DNA from: Burkholderia sp. BCC0506
Lineage (GTDB): Bacteria > Pseudomonadota > Gammaproteobacteria > Burkholderiales > Burkholderiaceae
Reading direction: 5' to 3'
Assembly: GCF_902833145.1 (NCBI RefSeq)
Contig: NZ_CADFEN010000009.1
Coordinates: forward strand, 124,001-188,000
DNA: 64,000 nucleotides
Under the pieces are notes generated by a model that did no database searches, was not told the DNA's origin, and was given only the letters and a program-made list of their open reading frames with translations. Within the stretch, counting starts at the first letter, position 1; each line of letters begins with the position of its first letter. Position numbers and translations under genes: made by a program. Shown here one piece after another: positions 7,803 through 23,030 of the stretch.

Positions 7803-7915
7803 AGCGGCTCGCGCGCTGGCAGGGCAGCGCGCGTCCCCCACAATGCGTTGCACGGGGCCGGATCGCGCGCTCGAGCGCCGGGTTCGGCCGACTGCAGCAA
7901 GGAAAGGAGCGAACG

Positions 7916-15017: not shown

Positions 15018-16205
15018 ATGACGCTTCGAGGAATCGTCTGGCTCGCGGTCCTGTTCGCGATCGCCGCGGCGCTCGCCACCGTCGGCCGTTTCGACGCGGG
15101 GCAGGTGCTGCTCGTCTACCCGCCGTACCGGGTCGACGTGTCGCTGAACCTGTTCGTGATCGCCATCGTCGTGCTGTTCATCGTCGTGTACGCGCTGCTG
15201 CGCATCGTGCGCAACATCTGGCGCATGCCGCAGCGGGTCGCCGCGTATCGTGCGCGTGCGCGCAACGAGAAGGCGCAGGCATCGCTGCGCGATGCGATCG
15301 CGAACCTCTACGCGGGCCGCTTCTCGCGTGCGGAGAAGGCCGCGCGTGAAGCGCTGGCGGTCGATGCGAACCTGGGCGCCGCGAGTCTCGTCGCGGCCAC
15401 GGCCGCGCACCGGATGCACGAGTACACGCGCCGCGACGACTGGCTGTCGAAGGTCGATGCGCCCGAATGGCAGGATGCACGGCTGCTCGCCGCGGCCGAC
15501 ATGCGCGCGGACGCCCGCGACGCCGACGGTGCGCTCGCCGCACTGGCCGACATGCAGGCCGGCGGCAAGCGCATCCACGCGCAGCAGGTCGCGCTGCGGG
15601 CCCAGCAGCAACTGAAGAACTGGGCCGAGGTGCTGAAGCTCGCGAAGGCGCTCGAAAAGCGCGAGGCGCTGCATCCGGCCGCGGCCGTGCGGCTGCGCCA
15701 GCAGGCGGCGGAAAACCTGCTGCGCGAACGCCGGCACGACCCGGATGCGCTGCTCGAAGTATGGCAGTCGCTGTCGCCCGTCGAGCGCCAGTCGCCGCGC
15801 CTGGCCGATCTCGCGGCCGAGCTGCTCGTGCCGCTCGAGCGCCGCAACGAAGCGCGCCGCATCGTCGAGGACGCGCTCGCGCACAACTGGGATGCACGCC
15901 TTTTGCGCCGCTACCCGGACACGGCCGGCGCCGATGCGCTGCCGCTGATCCAGAAGGCCGAAGGCTGGAAGAAGGATCATCCGGAAGACGCCGACCTGCT
16001 GTTCGCACTCGGCCGCCTCTGCCAGCAGCAGCAGCTGTGGGGCAAGGCGCAGTCGTTCCTCGAGTCGGCGCTGAAGCTGGCCGACAACGAGGCGCTGAAG
16101 GTGCGCGCGCATCGCGCGCTCGCCCGCCTGTTCGAGCATCTCGGCGAAACCGACAAGGCCGCGAAGCACTACCGCGAAAGCGCGCTCGCGATCACCGTGG
16201 TCTGA
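15018..16205 (+). CDS. hemY: HemY protoporphyrin/heme-pathway membrane protein
   Basis: A 395-aa inner-membrane protein. Two N-terminal helices (about 5-22 and 42-63) flank a short periplasmic loop. Then comes the HemY_N motif region with RMPQRVAAYRARAR and a long cytosolic TPR-type helical domain (repeated Ala-rich helix pairs, e.g. DLLFALGRLCQQQQLWGKAQ). It is always linked with hemC/hemD/hemX in gammas and betas, but its exact biochemical role is not settled and it is unrelated to Bacillus HemY oxidase. It is the last gene of the operon and is followed by a strong terminator. Confidence 0.92.
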   Translation: MTLRGIVWLAVLFAIAAALATVGRFDAGQVLLVYPPYRVDVSLNLFVIAIVVLFIVVYALLRIVRNIWRMPQRVAAYRARARNEKAQASLRDAIANLYAGRFSRAEKAAREALAVDANLGAASLVAATAAHRMHEYTRRDDWLSKVDAPEWQDARLLAAADMRADARDADGALAALADMQAGGKRIHAQQVALRAQQQLKNWAEVLKLAKALEKREALHPAAAVRLRQQAAENLLRERRHDPDALLEVWQSLSPVERQSPRLADLAAELLVPLERRNEARRIVEDALAHNWDARLLRRYPDTAGADALPLIQKAEGWKKDHPEDADLLFALGRLCQQQQLWGKAQSFLESALKLADNEALKVRAHRALARLFEHLGETDKAAKHYRESALAITVV

Positions 16206-16220
16206 CGCGGCGCTGCGTAG

Positions 16221-16258
16221 AAAGCCCCGAACGCCGATCGGCGTTCGGGGCTTTTTTT
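16221..16258 (+). terminator. Intrinsic terminator of the hem operon
   Basis: A 16-bp perfect stem AAAGCCCCGAACGCCG / CGGCGTTCGGGGCTTT (16221-16254) continues into an unbroken T-run ending at 16258. It is one of the strongest terminators in the window. Confidence 0.9.
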
Positions 16259-16457
16259 CGTCCGCCGTTGGGCCGCCGGCACGCAGCGTGCCGTCATCCG
16301 GCCGGTGCGGGCGCTGTCTGCCTGCAAGCCAAAACGCCTGGGCGCCGGGGCGATGCCGGACGTCGGGGCGGTTCGGGACGGGCCGGCAATCGGCCGGCGG
16401 CGTATCGGGTGTCTCGGGTGTGTCGGGTGTATCCGGCGCGCGTCGACGCGCCCCGCA

Positions 16458-17762
16458 TCACTTGTCGACGAGCCGCTTCGGCACCGACAACGCAAGCAGC
16501 CCGCCGAGCACGAGGAAGCCGGCCAGCATGTACATGCCCGCGTCGTTGGTGCTCGTCGCCTGCTTGAGCCAGCCCATCAGGTACGGGCTCAGGAAGCCGG
16601 CCAGGTTGCCGATCGAGTTGATCATCGCGATGCCGGCCGCGGCGGCCGTGCCGCCGAGGAACGCGGTCGGCAGGCTCCAGAACAGCGGCAGCGTCGTCAG
16701 GATGCCGATCGTCGCGAGCGTGAGGCCGAGCATCGCGAGCGCCGTCTGGTGCGCCCAGATCACCGACAGCACGAGGCCGAGCGCGCCGATCGCGGCCGGA
16801 ATCGCGACGTGCCAGCGGCGTTCGCGGCGTTTGTCCGCGCTGCGCGCGATCAGGATCATCGCGACCACCGCGGCCGCATACGGAATCGCCGACAGCAGGC
16901 CGATCATGAGCGTGTCGGTCACGCCCGTCGCCTTGATGATCGTCGGCAGCCAGAAGCCGACGCCGTAGAGCCCCATCACGAACGAGAAATAGATCAGCGC
17001 CATCAGCCACACGCGCGGGCTCGACATCACGGTGCCGAGCGGCAGGTCTTCCTTGGTGGCTTCCTCCGCGTCGACGTTGCGGGCGAGCAGCGCCTTTTCT
17101 TCGTCGGTCAGCCACGCCGCCTTCGCGATCCGTTCGTCGAGCGTGAAGAACACGAGCACGCCGGCGAGCACGGACGGAATGCCTTCGAGCAGGAAGAGCC
17201 ACTGCCAGCCGTGCCAGCCGCTCACGCCGTCGAACGCCTTCAGGATGAAGCCGGAGATCGGCCCGCCGATCACGCCGGACAGCGCGACGGCCGTCATGAA
17301 GAACGTCGTCATCCGGCCGCGCCGGTGCGCGGGATACCAGTAGGTGAGGTAGAGGATCACGCCGGGGAAGAAGCCCGCTTCGGCGACGCCGAGCAGGAAG
17401 CGCATCACGTAGAACATCGCGGGCGTCGTGACGAACATCGTCAGGATCGAGATCACGCCCCACGTCGCCATGATGCGGGCGATCCACACGCGGGCGCCCA
17501 CCCGGTGCAGGATGATGTTGCTCGGCACCTCGAACAGGAAATAGCCGAAGAAGAAGATCCCGGCTCCGAGCCCGTACACGGTGTCGCTCAGGTTCAGGTC
17601 GCTCGCCATCTGCAGCTTCGCGAACCCGACGTTTACGCGGTCGAGATACGCGACCACGTAGCACAGCAGCAGGAGCGGCACGAGCCGCCACGACACCTTG
17701 CGGTAGGTTGCTTCCTCGAATGCGCCGGACGAGCCCGGCAGCGACTGCGTCGATGTTGCCAT
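16458..17762 (-). CDS. MFS transporter, anion:cation symporter (ACS) family
   Basis: A 434-aa protein with about 12 hydrophobic helices. The N-terminal motif YVVAYLDRVNVGFAKLQM, FEVPSNIILHRVGAR and RFLLGVAEAGFFPG are typical of the ACS branch (tartrate, 4-hydroxyphenylacetate, galactonate and similar organic anions). It lies downstream of an aldehyde dehydrogenase and an SDR on the same strand, which fits uptake of a substrate oxidised by them. The substrate is not identifiable. SD AGGAGA lies 5 nt before the ATG. The SD is preceded directly by a tandem 49-bp element that also occurs before the dehydrogenase. Confidence 0.92.
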   Translation of the reverse strand: MATSTQSLPGSSGAFEEATYRKVSWRLVPLLLLCYVVAYLDRVNVGFAKLQMASDLNLSDTVYGLGAGIFFFGYFLFEVPSNIILHRVGARVWIARIMATWGVISILTMFVTTPAMFYVMRFLLGVAEAGFFPGVILYLTYWYPAHRRGRMTTFFMTAVALSGVIGGPISGFILKAFDGVSGWHGWQWLFLLEGIPSVLAGVLVFFTLDERIAKAAWLTDEEKALLARNVDAEEATKEDLPLGTVMSSPRVWLMALIYFSFVMGLYGVGFWLPTIIKATGVTDTLMIGLLSAIPYAAAVVAMILIARSADKRRERRWHVAIPAAIGALGLVLSVIWAHQTALAMLGLTLATIGILTTLPLFWSLPTAFLGGTAAAAGIAMINSIGNLAGFLSPYLMGWLKQATSTNDAGMYMLAGFLVLGGLLALSVPKRLVDK

Positions 17763-17772
17763 GTTGTCTCCT

Positions 17773-17870
17773 GTCGATCCAAGTTAGCGCTTTAGCGGTG
17801 ACCTGGATCCCATGCTTTGCGGTCGATCGATGGCCGCGCCTGGGCGGTGGCCTGGATCCGATGCACCGCT
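17773..17870 (-). repeat. Two tandem 49-bp leader elements before the MFS gene
   Basis: Copies at 17773-17821 and 17822-17870 both begin GTCGATC and end near GGATC(C)(C/G)ATGC. In the transcript (minus strand) copy 1 folds as GATCCAGGT / ACTTGGATC with an inner CCGCT/AGCGC arm, ending 1-2 nt before ACAGGAGA, the SD of the transporter. The second copy is more diverged but keeps the length exactly. The same 49-bp period recurs at 20252-20349. Confidence 0.75.
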
Positions 17871-17957
17871 GTCCTTGTAGTGGGCCGGAGCGGGTGCGGT
17901 GGCGCCCGATCCGGTTTCGTGCGAAGCAATACGCGGCGGCCGTGCCCCCCGTGACGG

Positions 17958-18716
17958 CTAGATGCAGCGCCCGCCGTCGACTTCGAGGCAGACGCCGGTG
18001 ATGAACTCGGCTTCGTCGGATGCGAGGTACAGCGCGGCGTTCGCGATGTCCTGCGGCGTCGAGAAGCGGCCGAGCGGAATCGTCGCGAGAAAGCGGCGGC
18101 GATTCTCCGGCGTGTCCTCGCAGCCCATGAACTCGGTCATCAGCGCGGTTTCGCCGAGCACCGGGTTGATGCAGTTCACGCGGATGCGCTCGGCGCCGAG
18201 TTCGGCCGCGAGCGACTTGCTCGCGGTGATCATCGCACCCTTCGTGCTGTTGTACCAGACAAGGCCCGGGCGCGGCCGCACGCCGGCCGTCGACGCGACG
18301 TTCACGAACACGCCGCCGCCCTGTGCGCGGAAGTACGGCACGAAGGTCTGCACGCACCAGAACAGGCTCTTCATGTTGACGGCGTACACGCGGTCGAATT
18401 CGGCTTCCGTCACGTCGAGCACGGGCTTGTTGCGGTGCGTCGTGCCCGCGTTGTTCACGACGATCTGCACCGCATGGAAATCGTCGAGCGCGGCCTGCAG
18501 CAGCGCGCGCCAGTCGTCCGCTTTCGACACGTCGCCGGCCACCGCGATCGCCTTGCCGCCCGCGAGCGCGATCTCGCTCGCGACGCGCTCGGCCGCCGCG
18601 CCGTGCAGGTCGTTGACGACGACGTTCGCGCCTTCGCGCGCGTACGTTTTCGCGATGCCTTCGCCGAACCCCGAGCCGCCGCCCGTGACGATGGCCGTCT
18701 TGCCGCTCAACCGCAT
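17958..18716 (-). CDS. SDR-family NAD(P)-dependent oxidoreductase
   Basis: A 252-aa classical short-chain dehydrogenase. TGGGSGFG (about 11-18) is the cofactor loop, NNAG near 88 follows, and the catalytic Ser (NVASTAG) and YNSTK complete the triad. The acidic residue at the end of beta2 (VVVNDLHG) favours NAD over NADP. Start chosen at MRLSGKTAIVTGG, which has GGAGACAC upstream. It lies between an aldehyde dehydrogenase and an MFS transporter on the same strand, so it probably oxidises an alcohol or sugar intermediate to the aldehyde dehydrogenase substrate. The substrate is unknown. Confidence 0.92.
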   Translation of the reverse strand: MRLSGKTAIVTGGGSGFGEGIAKTYAREGANVVVNDLHGAAAERVASEIALAGGKAIAVAGDVSKADDWRALLQAALDDFHAVQIVVNNAGTTHRNKPVLDVTEAEFDRVYAVNMKSLFWCVQTFVPYFRAQGGGVFVNVASTAGVRPRPGLVWYNSTKGAMITASKSLAAELGAERIRVNCINPVLGETALMTEFMGCEDTPENRRRFLATIPLGRFSTPQDIANAALYLASDEAEFITGVCLEVDGGRCI

Positions 18717-18801
18717 GGTGTGTCTCCTGTGCTGGTCATCAGAGTCGTCGTGTGCCGACCGGCGGCCGGGTGCTGCCCGCACGCCGGGCGCGTGCCGTGC
18801 G

Positions 18802-20241
18802 TCAGCCGTGCCGGATCGCGATCGTCTTCAGCGCGGTGAAGCCGTACAGGGCCTCGAAGCCTTTCTCGCGGCCATGGCCCGAATGGCCGACGCCGCCGAA
18901 CGGCAGCTCGACGCCGCCGCCCGCGCCATAGTTGTTGATGAACACCTGCCCCGCGCGCAGCCGCCGCGCAAGCCGCAACTGGCGCGCGCCGTCGCGGGTC
19001 CAGACGCCCGCGACGAGGCCGTACGGCGTGCCGTTCGCGAGCGCGACGGCTTCGTCCTCGTCGACGAAACGCATCGCCGCGAGCACGGGGCCGAATACCT
19101 CCTCCTGTGCGAGCCGGTGCGACGGCGGCACGTCGCGCAACAGCGCGGGCGCTTGATAGAAGCCGCTTTCGGGCGCGTCGGCGACGACTTGCCCGTGCGC
19201 GGCCATCGGAATGCCGTCATGCTGCGCGTCGGACAGGAAATCCCACACGCGTTGCTGCTGCTTCGCGTTGATCAGCGGGCCGCAGTCGAGATCGGCGCGG
19301 CTCGGGCCGACCCGCAGCCCGTTGAACGCGGTGGCGAGGCGCTCGACGAGCGGCTCGTACACCGCGCGCTCGATCAGCACGCGGCTGCCGGCCGAGCAGG
19401 TCTGCCCGCCGTTCTGCACGATCGCGGACACGAGCACCGGCAGCGCCGCGTCGAGATCGGCGTCGGCGAACACGATTTGCGGCGACTTGCCGCCGAGTTC
19501 GAGCGTGACGGGCACGTGGTTCTCGGCCGCCATCTGCGTGACCAGCTTGCCGGTGGCCGGCGAACCCGTAAACGAGATGTGGTCGATGCCCGGATGGCGC
19601 GCGAGCGCGGCGCCCGCTTCATGGCCGTAGCCGGTGACGATGTTGAGCGCGCCGGCCGGCAGCCCGGCCTCGGCGGCCAGCTCGGCGACGCGCAGCACGG
19701 ACAGGCACGCGTCCTCGGCCGGCTTGACGACGCACGCGTTGCCGGCCGCGAGCGCCGCGCCGACGCTGCGCCCGAAGATCTGCATCGGGTAGTTCCACGG
19801 CACGATATGGCCCGTGACGCCGTGCGGCTCGCGCACCGTCAGCACCGTGTAGCCGGCCTGGTAGGGGAGGGTTTCGCCGTGCAGCTTGTCGGCGGCGCCC
19901 GCGTAGAACTCGAAGTAGCGCGCGAGCGCGGCCGCGTCGGCGCGTGCCTGCTTCAGCGGCTTGCCGGTGTCGCGTGCCTCGATCGCGGCGAGCTCCTCGA
20001 TCGAATCGGCCACGCGCGCCGACAGCCGCATCAGCACGCGGCCGCGCTCGGCGGCGCTGGCGGCGCCCCACGGGCCCGCGAACGCGTCGCGGGCCGCGGC
20101 GACCGCGCGCTCGATGTCGGGCGCCGTGCCGCGCGCGATCGTCGCGAACGGCTGGCCGTCGGACGGATCGACGACCGCGATGGTTTCCAGTTGCGCGGGC
20201 AAGGTCCATTCGCCCGCGATGAAATGCTTCGCTTCTTCCAT
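18802..20241 (-). CDS. NAD(P)-dependent aldehyde dehydrogenase
   Basis: A 479-aa member of the ALDH superfamily. It shows IVPWNYPMQ, the cofactor-site SFTGSPATGK, general-base LELGGKSPQIVF, catalytic Cys in NGGQTCSAGSR, and EEVFGPVLA. It oxidises an aldehyde to the acid in the cytosol. It is the first gene of a probable ALDH-SDR-MFS transcription unit. The start is supported by AGGAGGAGG 2-6 nt upstream of ATG. The leader carries the tandem 49-bp hairpin element. The specific aldehyde cannot be read from the sequence. Confidence 0.93.
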   Translation of the reverse strand: MEEAKHFIAGEWTLPAQLETIAVVDPSDGQPFATIARGTAPDIERAVAAARDAFAGPWGAASAAERGRVLMRLSARVADSIEELAAIEARDTGKPLKQARADAAALARYFEFYAGAADKLHGETLPYQAGYTVLTVREPHGVTGHIVPWNYPMQIFGRSVGAALAAGNACVVKPAEDACLSVLRVAELAAEAGLPAGALNIVTGYGHEAGAALARHPGIDHISFTGSPATGKLVTQMAAENHVPVTLELGGKSPQIVFADADLDAALPVLVSAIVQNGGQTCSAGSRVLIERAVYEPLVERLATAFNGLRVGPSRADLDCGPLINAKQQQRVWDFLSDAQHDGIPMAAHGQVVADAPESGFYQAPALLRDVPPSHRLAQEEVFGPVLAAMRFVDEDEAVALANGTPYGLVAGVWTRDGARQLRLARRLRAGQVFINNYGAGGGVELPFGGVGHSGHGREKGFEALYGFTALKTIAIRHG

Positions 20242-20251
20242 GCCTCCTCCT

Positions 20252-20349
20252 GTCGACCCGAGTTAGCGCTTCAGCGCTTACTCGGGTCCCATGCATCGCG
20301 GTCGACCCAGGTTAGCGCTTCAGCGCTTGCTCGGGTTCCATACCTTGTG
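20252..20349 (-). repeat. Two tandem 49-bp leader elements before the aldehyde dehydrogenase
   Basis: Copies at 20252-20300 and 20301-20349 are nearly identical (GTCGACCC, GTTAGCGCTTCAGCGCTT, CTCGGGT). In the transcript, copy 1 forms GACCCGAGT / ACTCGGGTC with an inner AGCGCT/AGCGCT arm and ends just before ACAGGAGG, the SD. Together with the array at 17773-17870 this makes four copies with an identical 49-bp period. Confidence 0.8.
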
Positions 20350-20437
20350 ATTGACGTGCAACGCAGCCGGCCCGACGCCCGGACATCCGGAACGATTATC
20401 GCGCCGATCGTCATCCGGACGCCACCGGTCGATTGGC

Positions 20438-20443
20438 TATAAT
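20438..20443 (+). promoter_or_regulatory. Consensus -10 of ppa
   Basis: A perfect TATAAT lies 85 bp upstream of the ppa start. No clear -35 is seen at the 17-bp spacing, so the call rests on the -10 alone. Confidence 0.5.
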
Positions 20444-20527
20444 GGCGCATTCCTTTTGGGGGACGCCCGCGACGGCATCGGCCGCGGCGCCCTGTCCCGA
20501 ATTCCCATCGACCTACAGAGAGTGCTC

Positions 20528-21055
20528 ATGAGCTTCAATCATGTTCCGGCCGGCAAGGACCTGCCGCAAGATTTCAACGTGATCATCGAGATTCCCGCGC
20601 AAAGCGATCCGGTGAAGTACGAGGCGGACAAGGAACTGGGCCTCCTCGTCGTCGACCGCTTCATCGGCACGGGCATGCGCTACCCGGTGAACTACGGCTA
20701 CATCCCGCAGACGCTGTCGGGCGACGGCGATCCGGTCGACGTGCTGGTGATCACGCCGTTCCCGCTGCTGGCCGGCTCGATCGTGCGTTCGCGCGTGCTC
20801 GGCATGCTGCAGATGACCGACGAGTCGGGCGTCGACGCGAAGCTGATCGCCGTGCCGCACGACAAGATCTGCCCGATGACGGCGAACCTGAAGTCGATCG
20901 ACGACGTGCCCGAGTACCTGAAGGACCAGATCAAGCACTTCTTCGAGCAATACAAGGCGCTCGAGAAGGGCAAGTGGGTGAAGGTCGAAGGCTGGGCCGG
21001 CATCGAAGCCGCGCACAAGGAAATCACCGACGGCGCCGCGAACTACAAGAAGTAA
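20528..21055 (+). CDS. ppa: Inorganic pyrophosphatase
   Basis: A 175-aa family I pyrophosphatase hydrolysing PPi to phosphate in the cytosol. Metal-binding signature DGDPVDVLV (about 66-74), [12 protein letters not shown], and VPHDKICPM are intact. Length matches E. coli Ppa (176 aa). The start at [13 protein letters not shown] is the family N-terminus. It has its own TATAAT promoter and terminates within the 3' end of the convergent GIY-YIG gene. Confidence 0.97.
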
Positions 21056-21093
21056 GCGGCGTGCCGGCCGACGGCCGGCTCGTACGGAACGCG

Positions 21094-21134
21094 AACCGCG
21101 CGTGTCTCTTCAGGAGGCCGCGCGGTTTTGTTTT
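21094..21134 (+). terminator. Terminator of ppa inside the convergent gene
   Basis: AACCGCGCG (21094-21102) / CGCGCGGTT (21119-21127), with a 16-nt loop, is followed by TTGTTTT. The element overlaps the last codons and stop of the convergent GIY-YIG gene (stop at 21110). Confidence 0.65.
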
Positions 21135-21946
21135 GCGCGCATGGTTTTCCGGCGGGTGGGCGGTGAGGCAGGCGCGGCCGGGGCCTGCTTCGCGCGTTTC
21201 GCTCGGGGCGAGGCCACGGCCGGGGTGATCGCCGCGGTGGTTTTCGTGGCCGATGGACGGCGACGGGCCGGTGCGGAATCGGCGCCTTCGCGTACGCGCG
21301 CGGCGGGTTCGCCGGCAGTGGCTGGCACCTTCCCGTTTGACGGGGCGGAAGAGGGCGAGCCGGTTTTCTTGACCGGTGTGCGACGCGATGAGGTCTTTTT
21401 TGCGGCAGCATTGCCGTTGGTTTTTGCACGTTCCGGGTCTGGTGCGGCTCGATTCGATTGGGCCGGCGTCGACGCCGGCTCGCCCTTCGCGGGTTTCGCC
21501 TTCTTCGCGGCCGTTGCAGACCTGACAACTTTCCCGGCTTTCGCGTTGTTTCCGGCGACCTGTTCCGTTTCCGCCGTCTTCGCCGCATCGTCGATGTCGT
21601 TCCGCTGCCCCTTCTTCCGCCTGCGCACCGGCGCCTTCGTCTCGGCCGTGTCGCCGCTCCCGTCGAGCGCGACCGCTACCGGCAACACCGATTCCAGCGT
21701 GCGCAAACCGGCCGCCAGCTCGCGCTTTTTGGCGGGCGTGAGCCGCTTCACCCAGTATTCGGCGCGCGACGCGCTCGACCGGTCGGGCAGCGCAAACGTC
21801 GCGAGCACCGCACGCGGCTTGCGCGAGCGCGTGTAGCGTGCGCCCTTGCCGGACGCGTGTTCGTCGAAGCGCGCGGCGACATCGGTCGTGATGCCCGTAT
21901 AGACGCTGTCGTCGGCGCATTCGATCAGATACAGAAACCAGGACAT
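21110..21946 (-). CDS. GIY-YIG nuclease-family protein with histone H1-like tail
   Basis: A 278-aa protein. Residues 1 to about 90 are a UPF0213/YhbQ-type GIY-YIG domain (FLYLIECADDSVYTGIT, RFDEHASGKGARYTRSRKP, and the Glu in RAEYWVKRL). Standalone relatives stop near 100 aa. Here some 185 residues of Lys/Ala/Pro/Thr/Ser-rich low-complexity sequence follow, with many AAKK, PRAKRAK and RRKK patches resembling histone H1 or AlgP-type DNA-binding tails. The head probably acts on nucleic acid and the tail could tether it non-specifically to DNA. No operon partner is apparent. Confidence 0.85.
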   Translation of the reverse strand: MSWFLYLIECADDSVYTGITTDVAARFDEHASGKGARYTRSRKPRAVLATFALPDRSSASRAEYWVKRLTPAKKRELAAGLRTLESVLPVAVALDGSGDTAETKAPVRRRKKGQRNDIDDAAKTAETEQVAGNNAKAGKVVRSATAAKKAKPAKGEPASTPAQSNRAAPDPERAKTNGNAAAKKTSSRRTPVKKTGSPSSAPSNGKVPATAGEPAARVREGADSAPARRRPSATKTTAAITPAVASPRAKRAKQAPAAPASPPTRRKTMRAKQNRAAS

Positions 21947-21995
21947 GGCGGGGCGGCGGGATGCGAAGCCGCCAGTGTCTCAGAAAAAACGCGCG

Positions 21996-23030
21996 TCAAC
22001 GCCACCGGTCGCCGTGCCCGTCGCGAAAGCGGGTCGGCGCCGCGCCGAGTTCGCGCGTGAAGAAGCGCGTGAACGCGCTCGTCGAACGGAAGCCGACGCG
22101 CGCGCCGATCTCGCCGATCGGCAGCTGCGTGTTGAGCAGCAGGTCGCGCGCCTCGCCGAGCCGCGCCTGCGCGACGAGCGCATGGAACCCGACCGCTTCG
22201 CGATGCAGCCGCCGGCGCAGCGTCCAGCGCGACATCGCGAAGCGCGTGCACACGTGCTGCATCAGCGTGTCGGTCGGCACGTCGGTGTCGTCGGACGTAC
22301 GCAGCCAGTCGCGCACGCATTGCTCGACCGACGAGCCGAACGTCGACCGCGCGCGCACGCGCTCGCGTGCGGCGTCGGCCGCATGACGCTGGATGCCGGC
22401 GAGCGGTGCGTTGTAGCGCTCGAACGGCGTATCGAAGTGCGCGGAGCGCAGCACGAGGCGGTTGTGCGCGGCGTCGAACGATAGCGATGCGCCGAGCATG
22501 TCGCGCAGCGCGGCAACGGGCGCGAACGCGCGGCCGGCGAATTCGGCGTCATCGATGCGCGCCTGCGGATCGTACAGGCGCGCAAGCGCCGCGAGGATCG
22601 CGAGGTTCGCGAATGCGCTGCCCGCGTGCCGGCCGTCGCCTTCGTTCACGTATTCGAGCGCGATCGCGTCGCCGTTCTCGTGCGCGAAGACCCAGTCGAC
22701 GTTGCCGATCAGCTCGCGATAGTGCAGGTAACCGTGCAGCGCGTCGCGCAGCGTCGCCGCGTTGCACGTGATGCCGGCGAGTTCGGGAAACGGCACGAGC
22801 CACGGCTCGACCTGCGGCGGCGGGCGGCGCCACGACAGCGGCCAGTCGCTCGTCAGCTGCATCGCGGCCACGTGCCGGTCGCCCGCGATGCGGCGCGTGT
22901 CGTCGGCGAGCTCGGCCGGCCCGATGCCGAGCGTCTGGTAAAGCGGTGCGGGATCGATGCCGTTCATGCGCGCGTCTTCGCACAGCCAGCGGTAGATCCG
23001 GACCGATACCGATTTCTGTTGCAACTCCAT
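21996..23030 (-). CDS. AraC-family transcriptional regulator
   Basis: A 344-aa protein. The N-terminal region (about 20-200) resembles the Arabinose_bd domain of OruR/ArgR-type AraC regulators, with a FAHENGDAIALEYVNEG segment. The C-terminal 100 residues hold two HTH motifs: MSRWTLRRRLHREAVGFHALV and IGEIGARVGFRSTSAFTRFFTRELG. Start chosen at MELQQKSVSV, which has GGAGAC 3-6 nt upstream; longer frames have no similarity. It is divergent from the GH3 glucosidase (151 bp gap), its likely target. Confidence 0.9.
   Translation of the reverse strand: MELQQKSVSVRIYRWLCEDARMNGIDPAPLYQTLGIGPAELADDTRRIAGDRHVAAMQLTSDWPLSWRRPPPQVEPWLVPFPELAGITCNAATLRDALHGYLHYRELIGNVDWVFAHENGDAIALEYVNEGDGRHAGSAFANLAILAALARLYDPQARIDDAEFAGRAFAPVAALRDMLGASLSFDAAHNRLVLRSAHFDTPFERYNAPLAGIQRHAADAARERVRARSTFGSSVEQCVRDWLRTSDDTDVPTDTLMQHVCTRFAMSRWTLRRRLHREAVGFHALVAQARLGEARDLLLNTQLPIGEIGARVGFRSTSAFTRFFTRELGAAPTRFRDGHGDRWR

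What the first reader, a model, noticed from the sequence alone, without database searches (positions are those of the whole stretch)
17773..20349. Tandem 49-bp leader elements with a covarying hairpin before two genes of one catabolic cluster
Two arrays, each of exactly two 49-bp copies (17773-17870, 20252-20349), precede the SD of the MFS and ALDH genes. The transcript stem is GACCCGAGT/ACTCGGGTC before ALDH and GATCCAGGT/ACTTGGATC before MFS: the arms differ but keep pairing (C-G to U-A, G-U), which is what selection for RNA structure produces. The hairpin ends 1-2 nt before AGGAG, so it could gate translation, bind a protein or serve in mRNA processing. The SDR between them lacks the element. 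Short peptides such as MEPEQALKR are also possible.
Basis: partly seen in the sequence, partly recalled or inferred. Interest (0 to 1): 0.72.

Follow-up and report, generated by a model that had tools for sequence, protein, structure and literature searches.

The report
Burkholderia hairpin repeat beside ribosome-binding sites
Burkholderia genomes carry many copies of a 49-base hairpin that mostly sits just in front of ribosome-binding sites in the sense direction, which points to an unnamed control or mRNA-boundary element that multiplies as a repeat.

Summary
In detail: two tandem 49-nt copies precede the Shine-Dalgarno (SD) sequence of the ALDH gene and two that of the MFS gene, minus strand. 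It is not special to this cluster. A covariance model finds the element in 41 of 41 genomes of the genus (10-79 matches each), in 8 of 25 sampled genera of the family, and in 2 of 200 genomes of the order, both of this family.

In four genomes 48 of 57 sites lie shortly 5' of an SD and start codon in sense. nadA leaders, chosen by protein, keep the hairpin in one register in 48 of 60, with 28 different arms. In arrays the SD-side copy stays paired while outer copies decay.

Units are also replaced or spread as wholes.

Best reading: an mRNA hairpin beside the SD, spread like a REP repeat and retained for function; the step it acts on is inferred. No Rfam family matched. One paper lists sequences with its core as cas-less 'orphan CRISPR' repeats.

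The parts
20247..20297 (-). SD-side copy of the element before the ALDH gene (model positions 1-51, includes AGGAG)
   Evidence: 78.5 bits, E 2.5e-22; one of the copies the model was built from
20255..20288 (-). hairpin: 9-bp stem, A.A mismatch, 5-bp stem, UGAA loop
   Evidence: sequence; inverted repeat I14; model alignment
20247..20251 (-). Shine-Dalgarno AGGAG of the ALDH gene, 3 nt after the hairpin, 5 nt before the ATG
   Evidence: sequence
20298..20346 (-). outer tandem copy before the ALDH gene, less well paired
   Evidence: 54.6 bits, two pairs marked non-standard
18802..20241 (-). aldehyde dehydrogenase gene (best NCBIfam models shown are BADH/StyD-like; the 25 shown of 45 are all below their cut-offs)
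17768..17818 (-). SD-side copy before the MFS gene (includes AGGAG)
   Evidence: 65.3 bits, E 3.3e-18
17776..17809 (-). hairpin of the MFS leader, arms GAUCCAGGU / ACUUGGAUC
   Evidence: sequence; fold
17819..17867 (-). decayed outer tandem copy before the MFS gene
   Evidence: 17.7 bits; 61% identity to the 20252 copy
16458..17762 (-). MFS transporter gene (D-galactonate / HpaX-like models, below cut-offs)
17958..18716 (-). SDR gene between them (NF005559, above cut-off); no element before it
   Evidence: no match there
7847..7897 (+). third site: single diverged copy with its own arms
   Evidence: 35.6 bits, E 7e-9; L049
7916..8668 (+). gene after the third site (250 codons, MKHHDQVADAFG...; methyltransferase-like by my reading, no family search made)

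Best explanation
A dispersed 49-nt unit, GCAUGG-hairpin-GACA followed by the SD, works in the mRNA as a hairpin beside the ribosome-binding site of the following gene. Shown: it is a family; it mostly sits shortly 5' of an SD in sense orientation; the SD-side copy keeps its pairing while outer copies decay; loop, foot and mid-stem mismatch are largely conserved. Inferred: some sites lie between genes of one operon (from gene order); the folded transcript is what is selected, either as a 5' boundary that defines and protects the downstream mRNA end after processing and leaves the SD exposed, or as a protein-binding site beside the SD. Also inferred: units spread and turn over as wholes (tandem duplication, conversion or re-insertion), as in REP-like repeats.
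For: 48 of 57 full-length sites (E <= 1e-5) in four genomes have an SD and a start codon within about 30 nt 3' of the model end in sense; 2 of 57 met the antisense criterion. Several sites precede genes that I read as atpG, scoB, gcvP, trpA and atpC, usually not the first gene of their operons (operon order recalled, promoters not scanned). nadA leaders found by protein: 48 of 60 have the hairpin in the same register, 28 distinct 5' arms, median folding z -4.68. Arrays: 81 with two or more copies; SD-side copy 97.7% Watson-Crick, next copy 84.9%, outermost 76.4%; SD-side better than the next in 60, equal in 18, worse in 3; by gene 21, 11 and 1 of 33. The A.A mismatch is kept in 57 of 78 SD-side hairpins, and the loop is UAAA or UGAA in 68 of 78. 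Pair counts on 134 distinct rows: 11 of 14 pairs change on both sides, 174 cells v 44.2 shuffled, 0 of 500 shuffles reach the score (that alignment was fitted to the model). The 3' flank after GACA varies at the non-SD sites that I read, so one fixed target sequence does not explain the SD contact.
Against: In SD-side hairpins G.U (18) is no commoner than A.C (19) or other mismatches (22) among 1014 cells; ordinary RNA-structure selection tolerates G.U. Two-sided changes dominate between close relatives (22 v 8). Nine of 57 sites do not meet the sense-SD criterion (rRNA/tRNA spacers, a second repeat, a 5'UTR, an antisense site and others). The element is missing or out of register at nadA in 12 of 60 (some of these keep a changed version by eye) and at atpC 5 of 40 are empty, 9 keep only the foot and 1 is unlike the rest, so it is dispensable there. 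Predicted SD exposure barely depends on the hairpin: 0.601 native, 0.533 shuffled, 0.572 deleted. The array gradient could also arise if the SD-side copy is always the youngest. No transcript, probing or expression data were available.
Confidence: 0.55

Rival explanations
1. A REP-like repeat that copies itself as a unit and happens to insert or persist 5' of SD sequences, with no regulatory role; the palindrome is kept because a hairpin is needed for copying, and old copies decay.
For: Dispersed, high copy; empty sites CTCAACC|AGGAG before atpC (5 of 40), which may be losses or never-filled sites; identical copies inside a second repeat, 16 in 15 fetched stretches of one genome; arms more alike within a genome than between (0.199 v 0.038, p 0.0015, 32 sites of three genomes); G.U = A.C in SD-side copies; the SD-side copy could simply be the youngest.
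Against: No mobilising gene found: the one Y1_Tnp match per genome (8 of 8 genomes) has no element within the 1.5 kb read on either side and lacks the HxH motif. The 3' flank varies at the non-SD sites read. The hairpin persists at nadA in 48 of 60 genomes with the same spacing. Insertion before an SD should often harm (reasoning).
Confidence: 0.25
2. The paired arms are kept by DNA-level templated correction of a quasi-palindrome, so the covariation says nothing about function.
For: Two-sided changes 22 v one-sided 8 in nine sister pairs; no G.U preference in SD-side copies.
Against: Outer copies in the same arrays are less paired (84.9% and 76.4% v 97.7%). The mid-stem mismatch is mostly not repaired (57 of 78 A.A; Watson-Crick in 4 of the 75 that one search lists).
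Confidence: 0.08
3. Target site for the double-hairpin sRNAs (ncS27 type, RF02278), the element being the recognition context.
For: Four RF02278 matches over cut-off in the own genome carry UGUCUCCUCC, complementary to the AGGAGACA that follows some copies; predicted targets of these sRNAs are rich in carbon metabolism genes (passages of PMC5688073).
Against: The complementarity is to the SD itself, not to the hairpin; no pairing of these sRNAs with the hairpin was computed.
Confidence: 0.05
4. Binding site of a CsrA/RsmA-type protein using the two GGA motifs that flank the stem.
For: GGGA and AGGA flank the stem base (sequence).
Against: No CsrA match in 3 of 3 genomes, while the same search rings in three control genomes, E. 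coli and B. subtilis among them.
Confidence: 0.01
5. DNA operator of a transcription factor (palindromic AGCGCT core).
For: Symmetric core TTAGCGCT/AGCGCTAA.
Against: Arms vary between copies in concert, one orientation dominates and the sites lie at the SD, some of them between genes of an operon (inferred).
Confidence: 0.03
6. Short upstream ORFs (AUGGGANNNNNGUAA) form a leader-peptide attenuator.
For: uAUG kept in 76 of 78 SD-side hairpins and a stop at codon 5 in 62.
Against: The stop count is near the expectation from independent columns (58.4); no SD is evident before the uAUG in the copies printed; in tandem arrays a 49-nt step shifts the frame.
Confidence: 0.02

Closest known systems
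REP / BIME elements with RAYT transposases (enterobacteria, pseudomonads; features recalled, not from a call)
   Same: short dispersed hairpins with a conserved foot and an irregular stem, singly and in tandem, spread within a genome
   Different: here 48 of 57 sites lie shortly 5' of an SD in sense; no element beside the one Y1_Tnp match of each of 8 genomes, and that gene lacks the HUH residues
TAACTGA direct repeats of Beggiatoaceae (PMC4679880, abstract and outline read)
   Same: tandem repeats within a few nucleotides of start codons of genes with no common function, proposed as post-transcriptional sites
   Different: a heptamer in unrelated bacteria; ours is a 49-nt hairpin unit beside a canonical SD
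Structured 5' ends that stabilise downstream operon segments (PMC5927463, abstract and outline read)
   Same: RNA structure at the upstream edge of a stabilised operon segment
   Different: those are individual structures in E. coli, by the abstract generally coded within protein-coding regions; ours is one repeated family placed at the SD, and stabilisation is not shown here
ERIC repeats (features recalled; named as possible cis-acting RNA elements in a passage of PMC2527527)
   Same: palindromic intergenic repeats near genes
   Different: longer and not locked to the SD (recalled)
'Orphan CRISPR' repeats of Paraburkholderia (PMC5968390, passages read)
   Same: three listed repeat sequences hold this element's core; no cas genes were identified there
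   Different: by inference they are tandem hairpin units, not repeats with foreign spacers; those genomes' arrays were not fetched
Burkholderiales-1 candidate RNA (PMC2864571, table row only)
   Same: candidate structured RNA limited to Burkholderiales, so identity cannot be excluded
   Different: only the name was seen; no sequence, and no Rfam accession in the table

Membership tests
cis-acting mRNA structure beside the SD | conserved pairing with changes on both sides | tested here: met
   11 of 14 pairs with two-sided changes; score .284 v .120, 0 of 500 shuffles; nadA orthologues alone show two-sided changes too
cis-acting mRNA structure beside the SD | sense orientation, close to the SD | tested here: met
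   48 of 57 sites
cis-acting mRNA structure beside the SD | tolerance of G.U over A.C expected of RNA selection | tested here: not met
   18 v 19 in SD-side hairpins; 83 v 49 in other copies
cis-acting mRNA structure beside the SD | effect on expression of the next gene | not testable with these tools
   no expression data
REP element of a RAYT system | RAYT gene flanked by copies of the element | tested here: not met
   0 matches at E <= 1 around 8 of 8 Y1_Tnp matches
REP element of a RAYT system | catalytic HUH residues in the transposase | tested here: not met
   QxQ, AxQ or AxH where HxH is expected, 8 of 8 (motif recalled)
REP element of a RAYT system | short dispersed hairpin repeat with spread within a genome | tested here: met
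any Rfam 15 family | match above gathering score | tested here: not met
   window 16000-22000 and ten further loci: four matches in all, each below its gathering score
CsrA-regulated leader | CsrA present | tested here: not met
   0 of 3 genomes
CRISPR array | unique spacers between repeats | tested here: not met
   in the arrays read, the 49- or 50-nt period is one hairpin unit plus a recurring short linker
CRISPR array | cas genes nearby | not tested
   the paper's table marks cas genes as not identified for these repeats
Burkholderiales-1 (Weinberg 2010) | its sequence and structure | not testable with these tools
   supplement not available

The most novel reading that the evidence does not exclude
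A portable ribosome-site module: a hairpin family that copies itself as a unit into the slot just 5' of SD sequences, in sense, by a mechanism not yet known, and by doing so sets translation or mRNA stability of dozens of unrelated genes differently in each Burkholderia species.
Probability: 0.3. Interest if true: 0.85.

Novelty: new variant of a known kind. Interest (0 to 1): 0.62.

Why it matters
If the reading is right, a whole group of bacteria carries dozens of interchangeable leader hairpins, absent from Rfam, before genes such as nadA, atpC, atpG, trpA, gcvP and many catabolic genes. Copy number differs between loci and species (1 to 13 in a row in the set). That gives a natural series for testing how a structure next to the SD sets translation and mRNA life, and how a repeat can be held at ribosome-binding sites. 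It may also correct the literature: one paper counts repeats with this core as orphan CRISPRs (PMC5968390).

Tried and rejected
CsrA, Rfam families (the sub-threshold matches are taken as chance), uORF, RAYT. A simple 'insulator' effect on SD exposure is weak: native above shuffled in 41 of 60, above deleted in 31 of 60 sampled leaders. Neighbour-gene direction by open frames was uninformative in this GC-rich DNA. Phage records hold no match. Annotated plasmid records H1, H2, H4 and H5 carry no listed genes at the stretch. A first hairpin pattern was wrong and was replaced. The atpC classifier is loose: it labels 26 of 40 'hairpin'; L307 has no element by eye and I count it apart (25), and in L301 the hairpin lies further up.

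Biases. The loci are best model hits, so they favour perfect copies (74 of 88 have a start codon within 20 nt). mixes such loci with nadA and atpC loci chosen by protein. Only 40 of 61 atpC leaders and 60 of 61 nadA leaders were read. One search covers full-length matches at E <= 1e-5 in four genomes, tandem copies and equal-scoring rRNA copies collapsed to one site; one further full-length rRNA-spacer site of G006 is outside the 57 (48 of 58 with it). One search uses nine sister pairs among 30 genomes. One search used 32 of the 57 sites: hand-picked for equal register, none from G030. The genome searches scored only part of their first-look candidates (150 of 11455) and their E-values are rough, so match counts are lower bounds.

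Papers. Seen as passages: PMC4603805, PMC5688073, PMC2864571, PMC1853098, PMC2527527, PMC5968390. Seen as abstract and outline: PMC4679880, PMC5927463. Not held: the paper asked for by DOI. That I found no description of the element rests on searches of open-access papers; one search found the core letters in one paper, as CRISPR repeats.
Full report
What is there. The window carries four copies of one 49-nt unit in two tandem pairs: 17773-17870 before the MFS gene and 20252-20349 before the ALDH gene, both on the minus strand. Read as RNA the unit is GCAUGG, then a hairpin (9-bp stem, A.A mismatch, 5-bp stem, URAA loop), then GAC and, in the SD-side copy, AGGAG; the start codon lies 5 nt further on at both genes. 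The SD-side copies are well formed (78.5 and 65.3 bits), the outer ones worse (54.6 and 17.7), and a third, single copy lies at 7847-7897(+). The SDR gene between the two pairs has none. In the predicted fold of the ALDH leader the two copies pair with each other, as each unit is nearly self-complementary.

A family, not a cluster feature. BLAST with the ALDH leader gives ten places at E < 1e-4 in the own genome, itself and the MFS leader included. A covariance model from 16 copies of this genome gives 42 matches at E <= 1, of which 27 are full-length at E < 1e-3; 10-79 matches in each of 41 of 41 genomes of the genus at E <= 1e-3; and matches in 46 of 120 genomes and 8 of 25 genera of the family at E <= 1e-5. 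In the order sample 2 of 200 genomes match at E <= 1e-6, both of the same family. The genus is unnamed in these searches; that it is Burkholderia is inferred from 99% identical ALDH loci in named Burkholderia. Plasmid-collection records with similar DNA are Burkholderia, Paraburkholderia and Caballeronia (20 records); among named ALDH loci the two strongest matches away from the ALDH leader are in Trinickia and Caballeronia. Arrays reach nine copies at a 49-nt step and eight at 50 nt before the gene read as trpA, and 13 by the script's count before atpC.

Position. In four genomes I took all full-length matches at E <= 1e-5 as sites (57; tandem copies and equal-scoring rRNA copies collapsed, one rRNA-spacer site of G006 left out). 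48 have, within about 30 nt 3' of the model end, an SD and a start codon of a long open frame in sense: own genome 15 of 17, G021 11 of 14, G030 5 of 7, G006 17 of 19; two met the antisense criterion, one of which is also a sense site. The genes are unrelated: I read them as nadA, atpG, atpC, trpA, gcvP, scoB, moaE, aceF, pobA, acyl-CoA enzymes and transporters (translations; not searched against families). Several of these are usually inside operons. The other nine sites are rRNA or tRNA spacers, a second dispersed repeat, one antisense site and others.

Orthologues chosen by protein. nadA: 60 leaders of 61 genomes were read; 48 hold the hairpin in the same register to AGGAG, with 28 different 5' arms. 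atpC: of 40 leaders read (of 61 genomes), 25 hold an element by script and eye, 5 are empty (CTCAACC|AGGAG), 9 keep only the 5' foot, and 1 is unlike the rest. ALDH: of ten loci that I take as Burkholderia sensu stricto (L158-L166, L171), eight match at the leader; L159 (Burkholderia sp. D-99) has an empty leader and L166 a degenerate one; in the other 70 loci no match lies at the leader, though many Paraburkholderia leaders have an AGGAG there. I infer that the SD is native and the unit was added in front of it; the empty atpC sites may be losses instead.

What keeps the arms paired. Pair counts are far above shuffles. But three results weaken the simple RNA-covariation argument. In SD-side hairpins the exceptions are G.U 18, A.C 19, other 22 of 1014 cells, although the other copies show 83 G.U to 49 A.C. 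Nine sister pairs with 2-6% difference in nadA show 22 two-sided Watson-Crick changes, 3 other two-sided and 8 one-sided. Arms are more alike within a genome than between genomes (0.199 v 0.038, permutation p 0.0015, 32 sites of three genomes). Units therefore probably also move or are replaced as wholes. On the other side, within arrays the SD-side copy is 97.7% Watson-Crick against 84.9% for the next and 76.4% for the outermost copy, better than the next in 60, equal in 18, worse in 3 of 81 arrays (21, 11 and 1 of 33 genes). For nadA (33 arrays) the means are 12.6, 10.6 and 9.6 of 13 pairs. The mid-stem mismatch is mostly kept as a mismatch. A blind repair process would treat all copies and the mismatch alike; selection on the SD-side copy, or its being always the youngest, would not.

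How it most likely works. Sense orientation and SD contact point to the transcript. The hairpin could mark and protect the 5' edge of the downstream mRNA, as structured ends do in E. coli operons (PMC5927463, abstract and outline), or bind a protein beside the SD. It does not itself pair with the SD in most of the local nadA folds, and modelled SD exposure changes little without it, so a pure folding insulator is not favoured. CsrA is absent, and peptides are not supported. The spread resembles REP repeats, but no RAYT association was found in eight genomes.

Known or new. No Rfam family matches above its cut-off in what was scanned. Text searches found no description. Three repeat sequences listed as cas-less orphan CRISPRs in Paraburkholderia hold the core of the unit. 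A candidate named Burkholderiales-1 exists whose sequence I could not see. I rate it a new variant of a known kind: a REP-like dispersed hairpin, distinct by its place at the SD.

Noticed in passing
L138-L152 (16 elements in 15 stretches of G073), L029, L124: The element sits inside a second, GC-rich dispersed repeat (GGGCCGCCCCAAGG...CCCCTCGGGGGG...GTGAGCGTGGGGG), seemingly antisense to the start codon at its end; the 16 elements printed for one genome are identical.
   Followed up: partly
L042 502-551; L153; L254; L255: Copies of the hairpin in what I read as rRNA operon spacers (23S-5S, 16S-23S and beside a tRNA), on the strand opposite to the rRNA in L042.
   Followed up: partly
L242 1120-1833(-) and the loci L238-L241, L243-L245: One IS200-like Y1_Tnp match per genome in 8 of 8 (7 over the cut-off), well conserved, with the HxH motif replaced; looks like a domesticated transposase.
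   Followed up: partly
PMC5968390, Table 4: Repeats with this element's core are reported as orphan CRISPRs in Paraburkholderia terrae, P. hospita and P. oxyphila; probably tandem arrays of the element.
   Followed up: partly
L132-L135: Double-hairpin sRNAs (RF02278) carry UGUCUCCUCC, complementary to AGGAGACA that follows some of the SD sites.
   Followed up: partly
L114 949-1551, L154: Long arrays before atpC (46-nt alternation of two unit types) and before the gene read as trpA (eight copies, 50-nt step): likely length-variable loci.
   Followed up: partly
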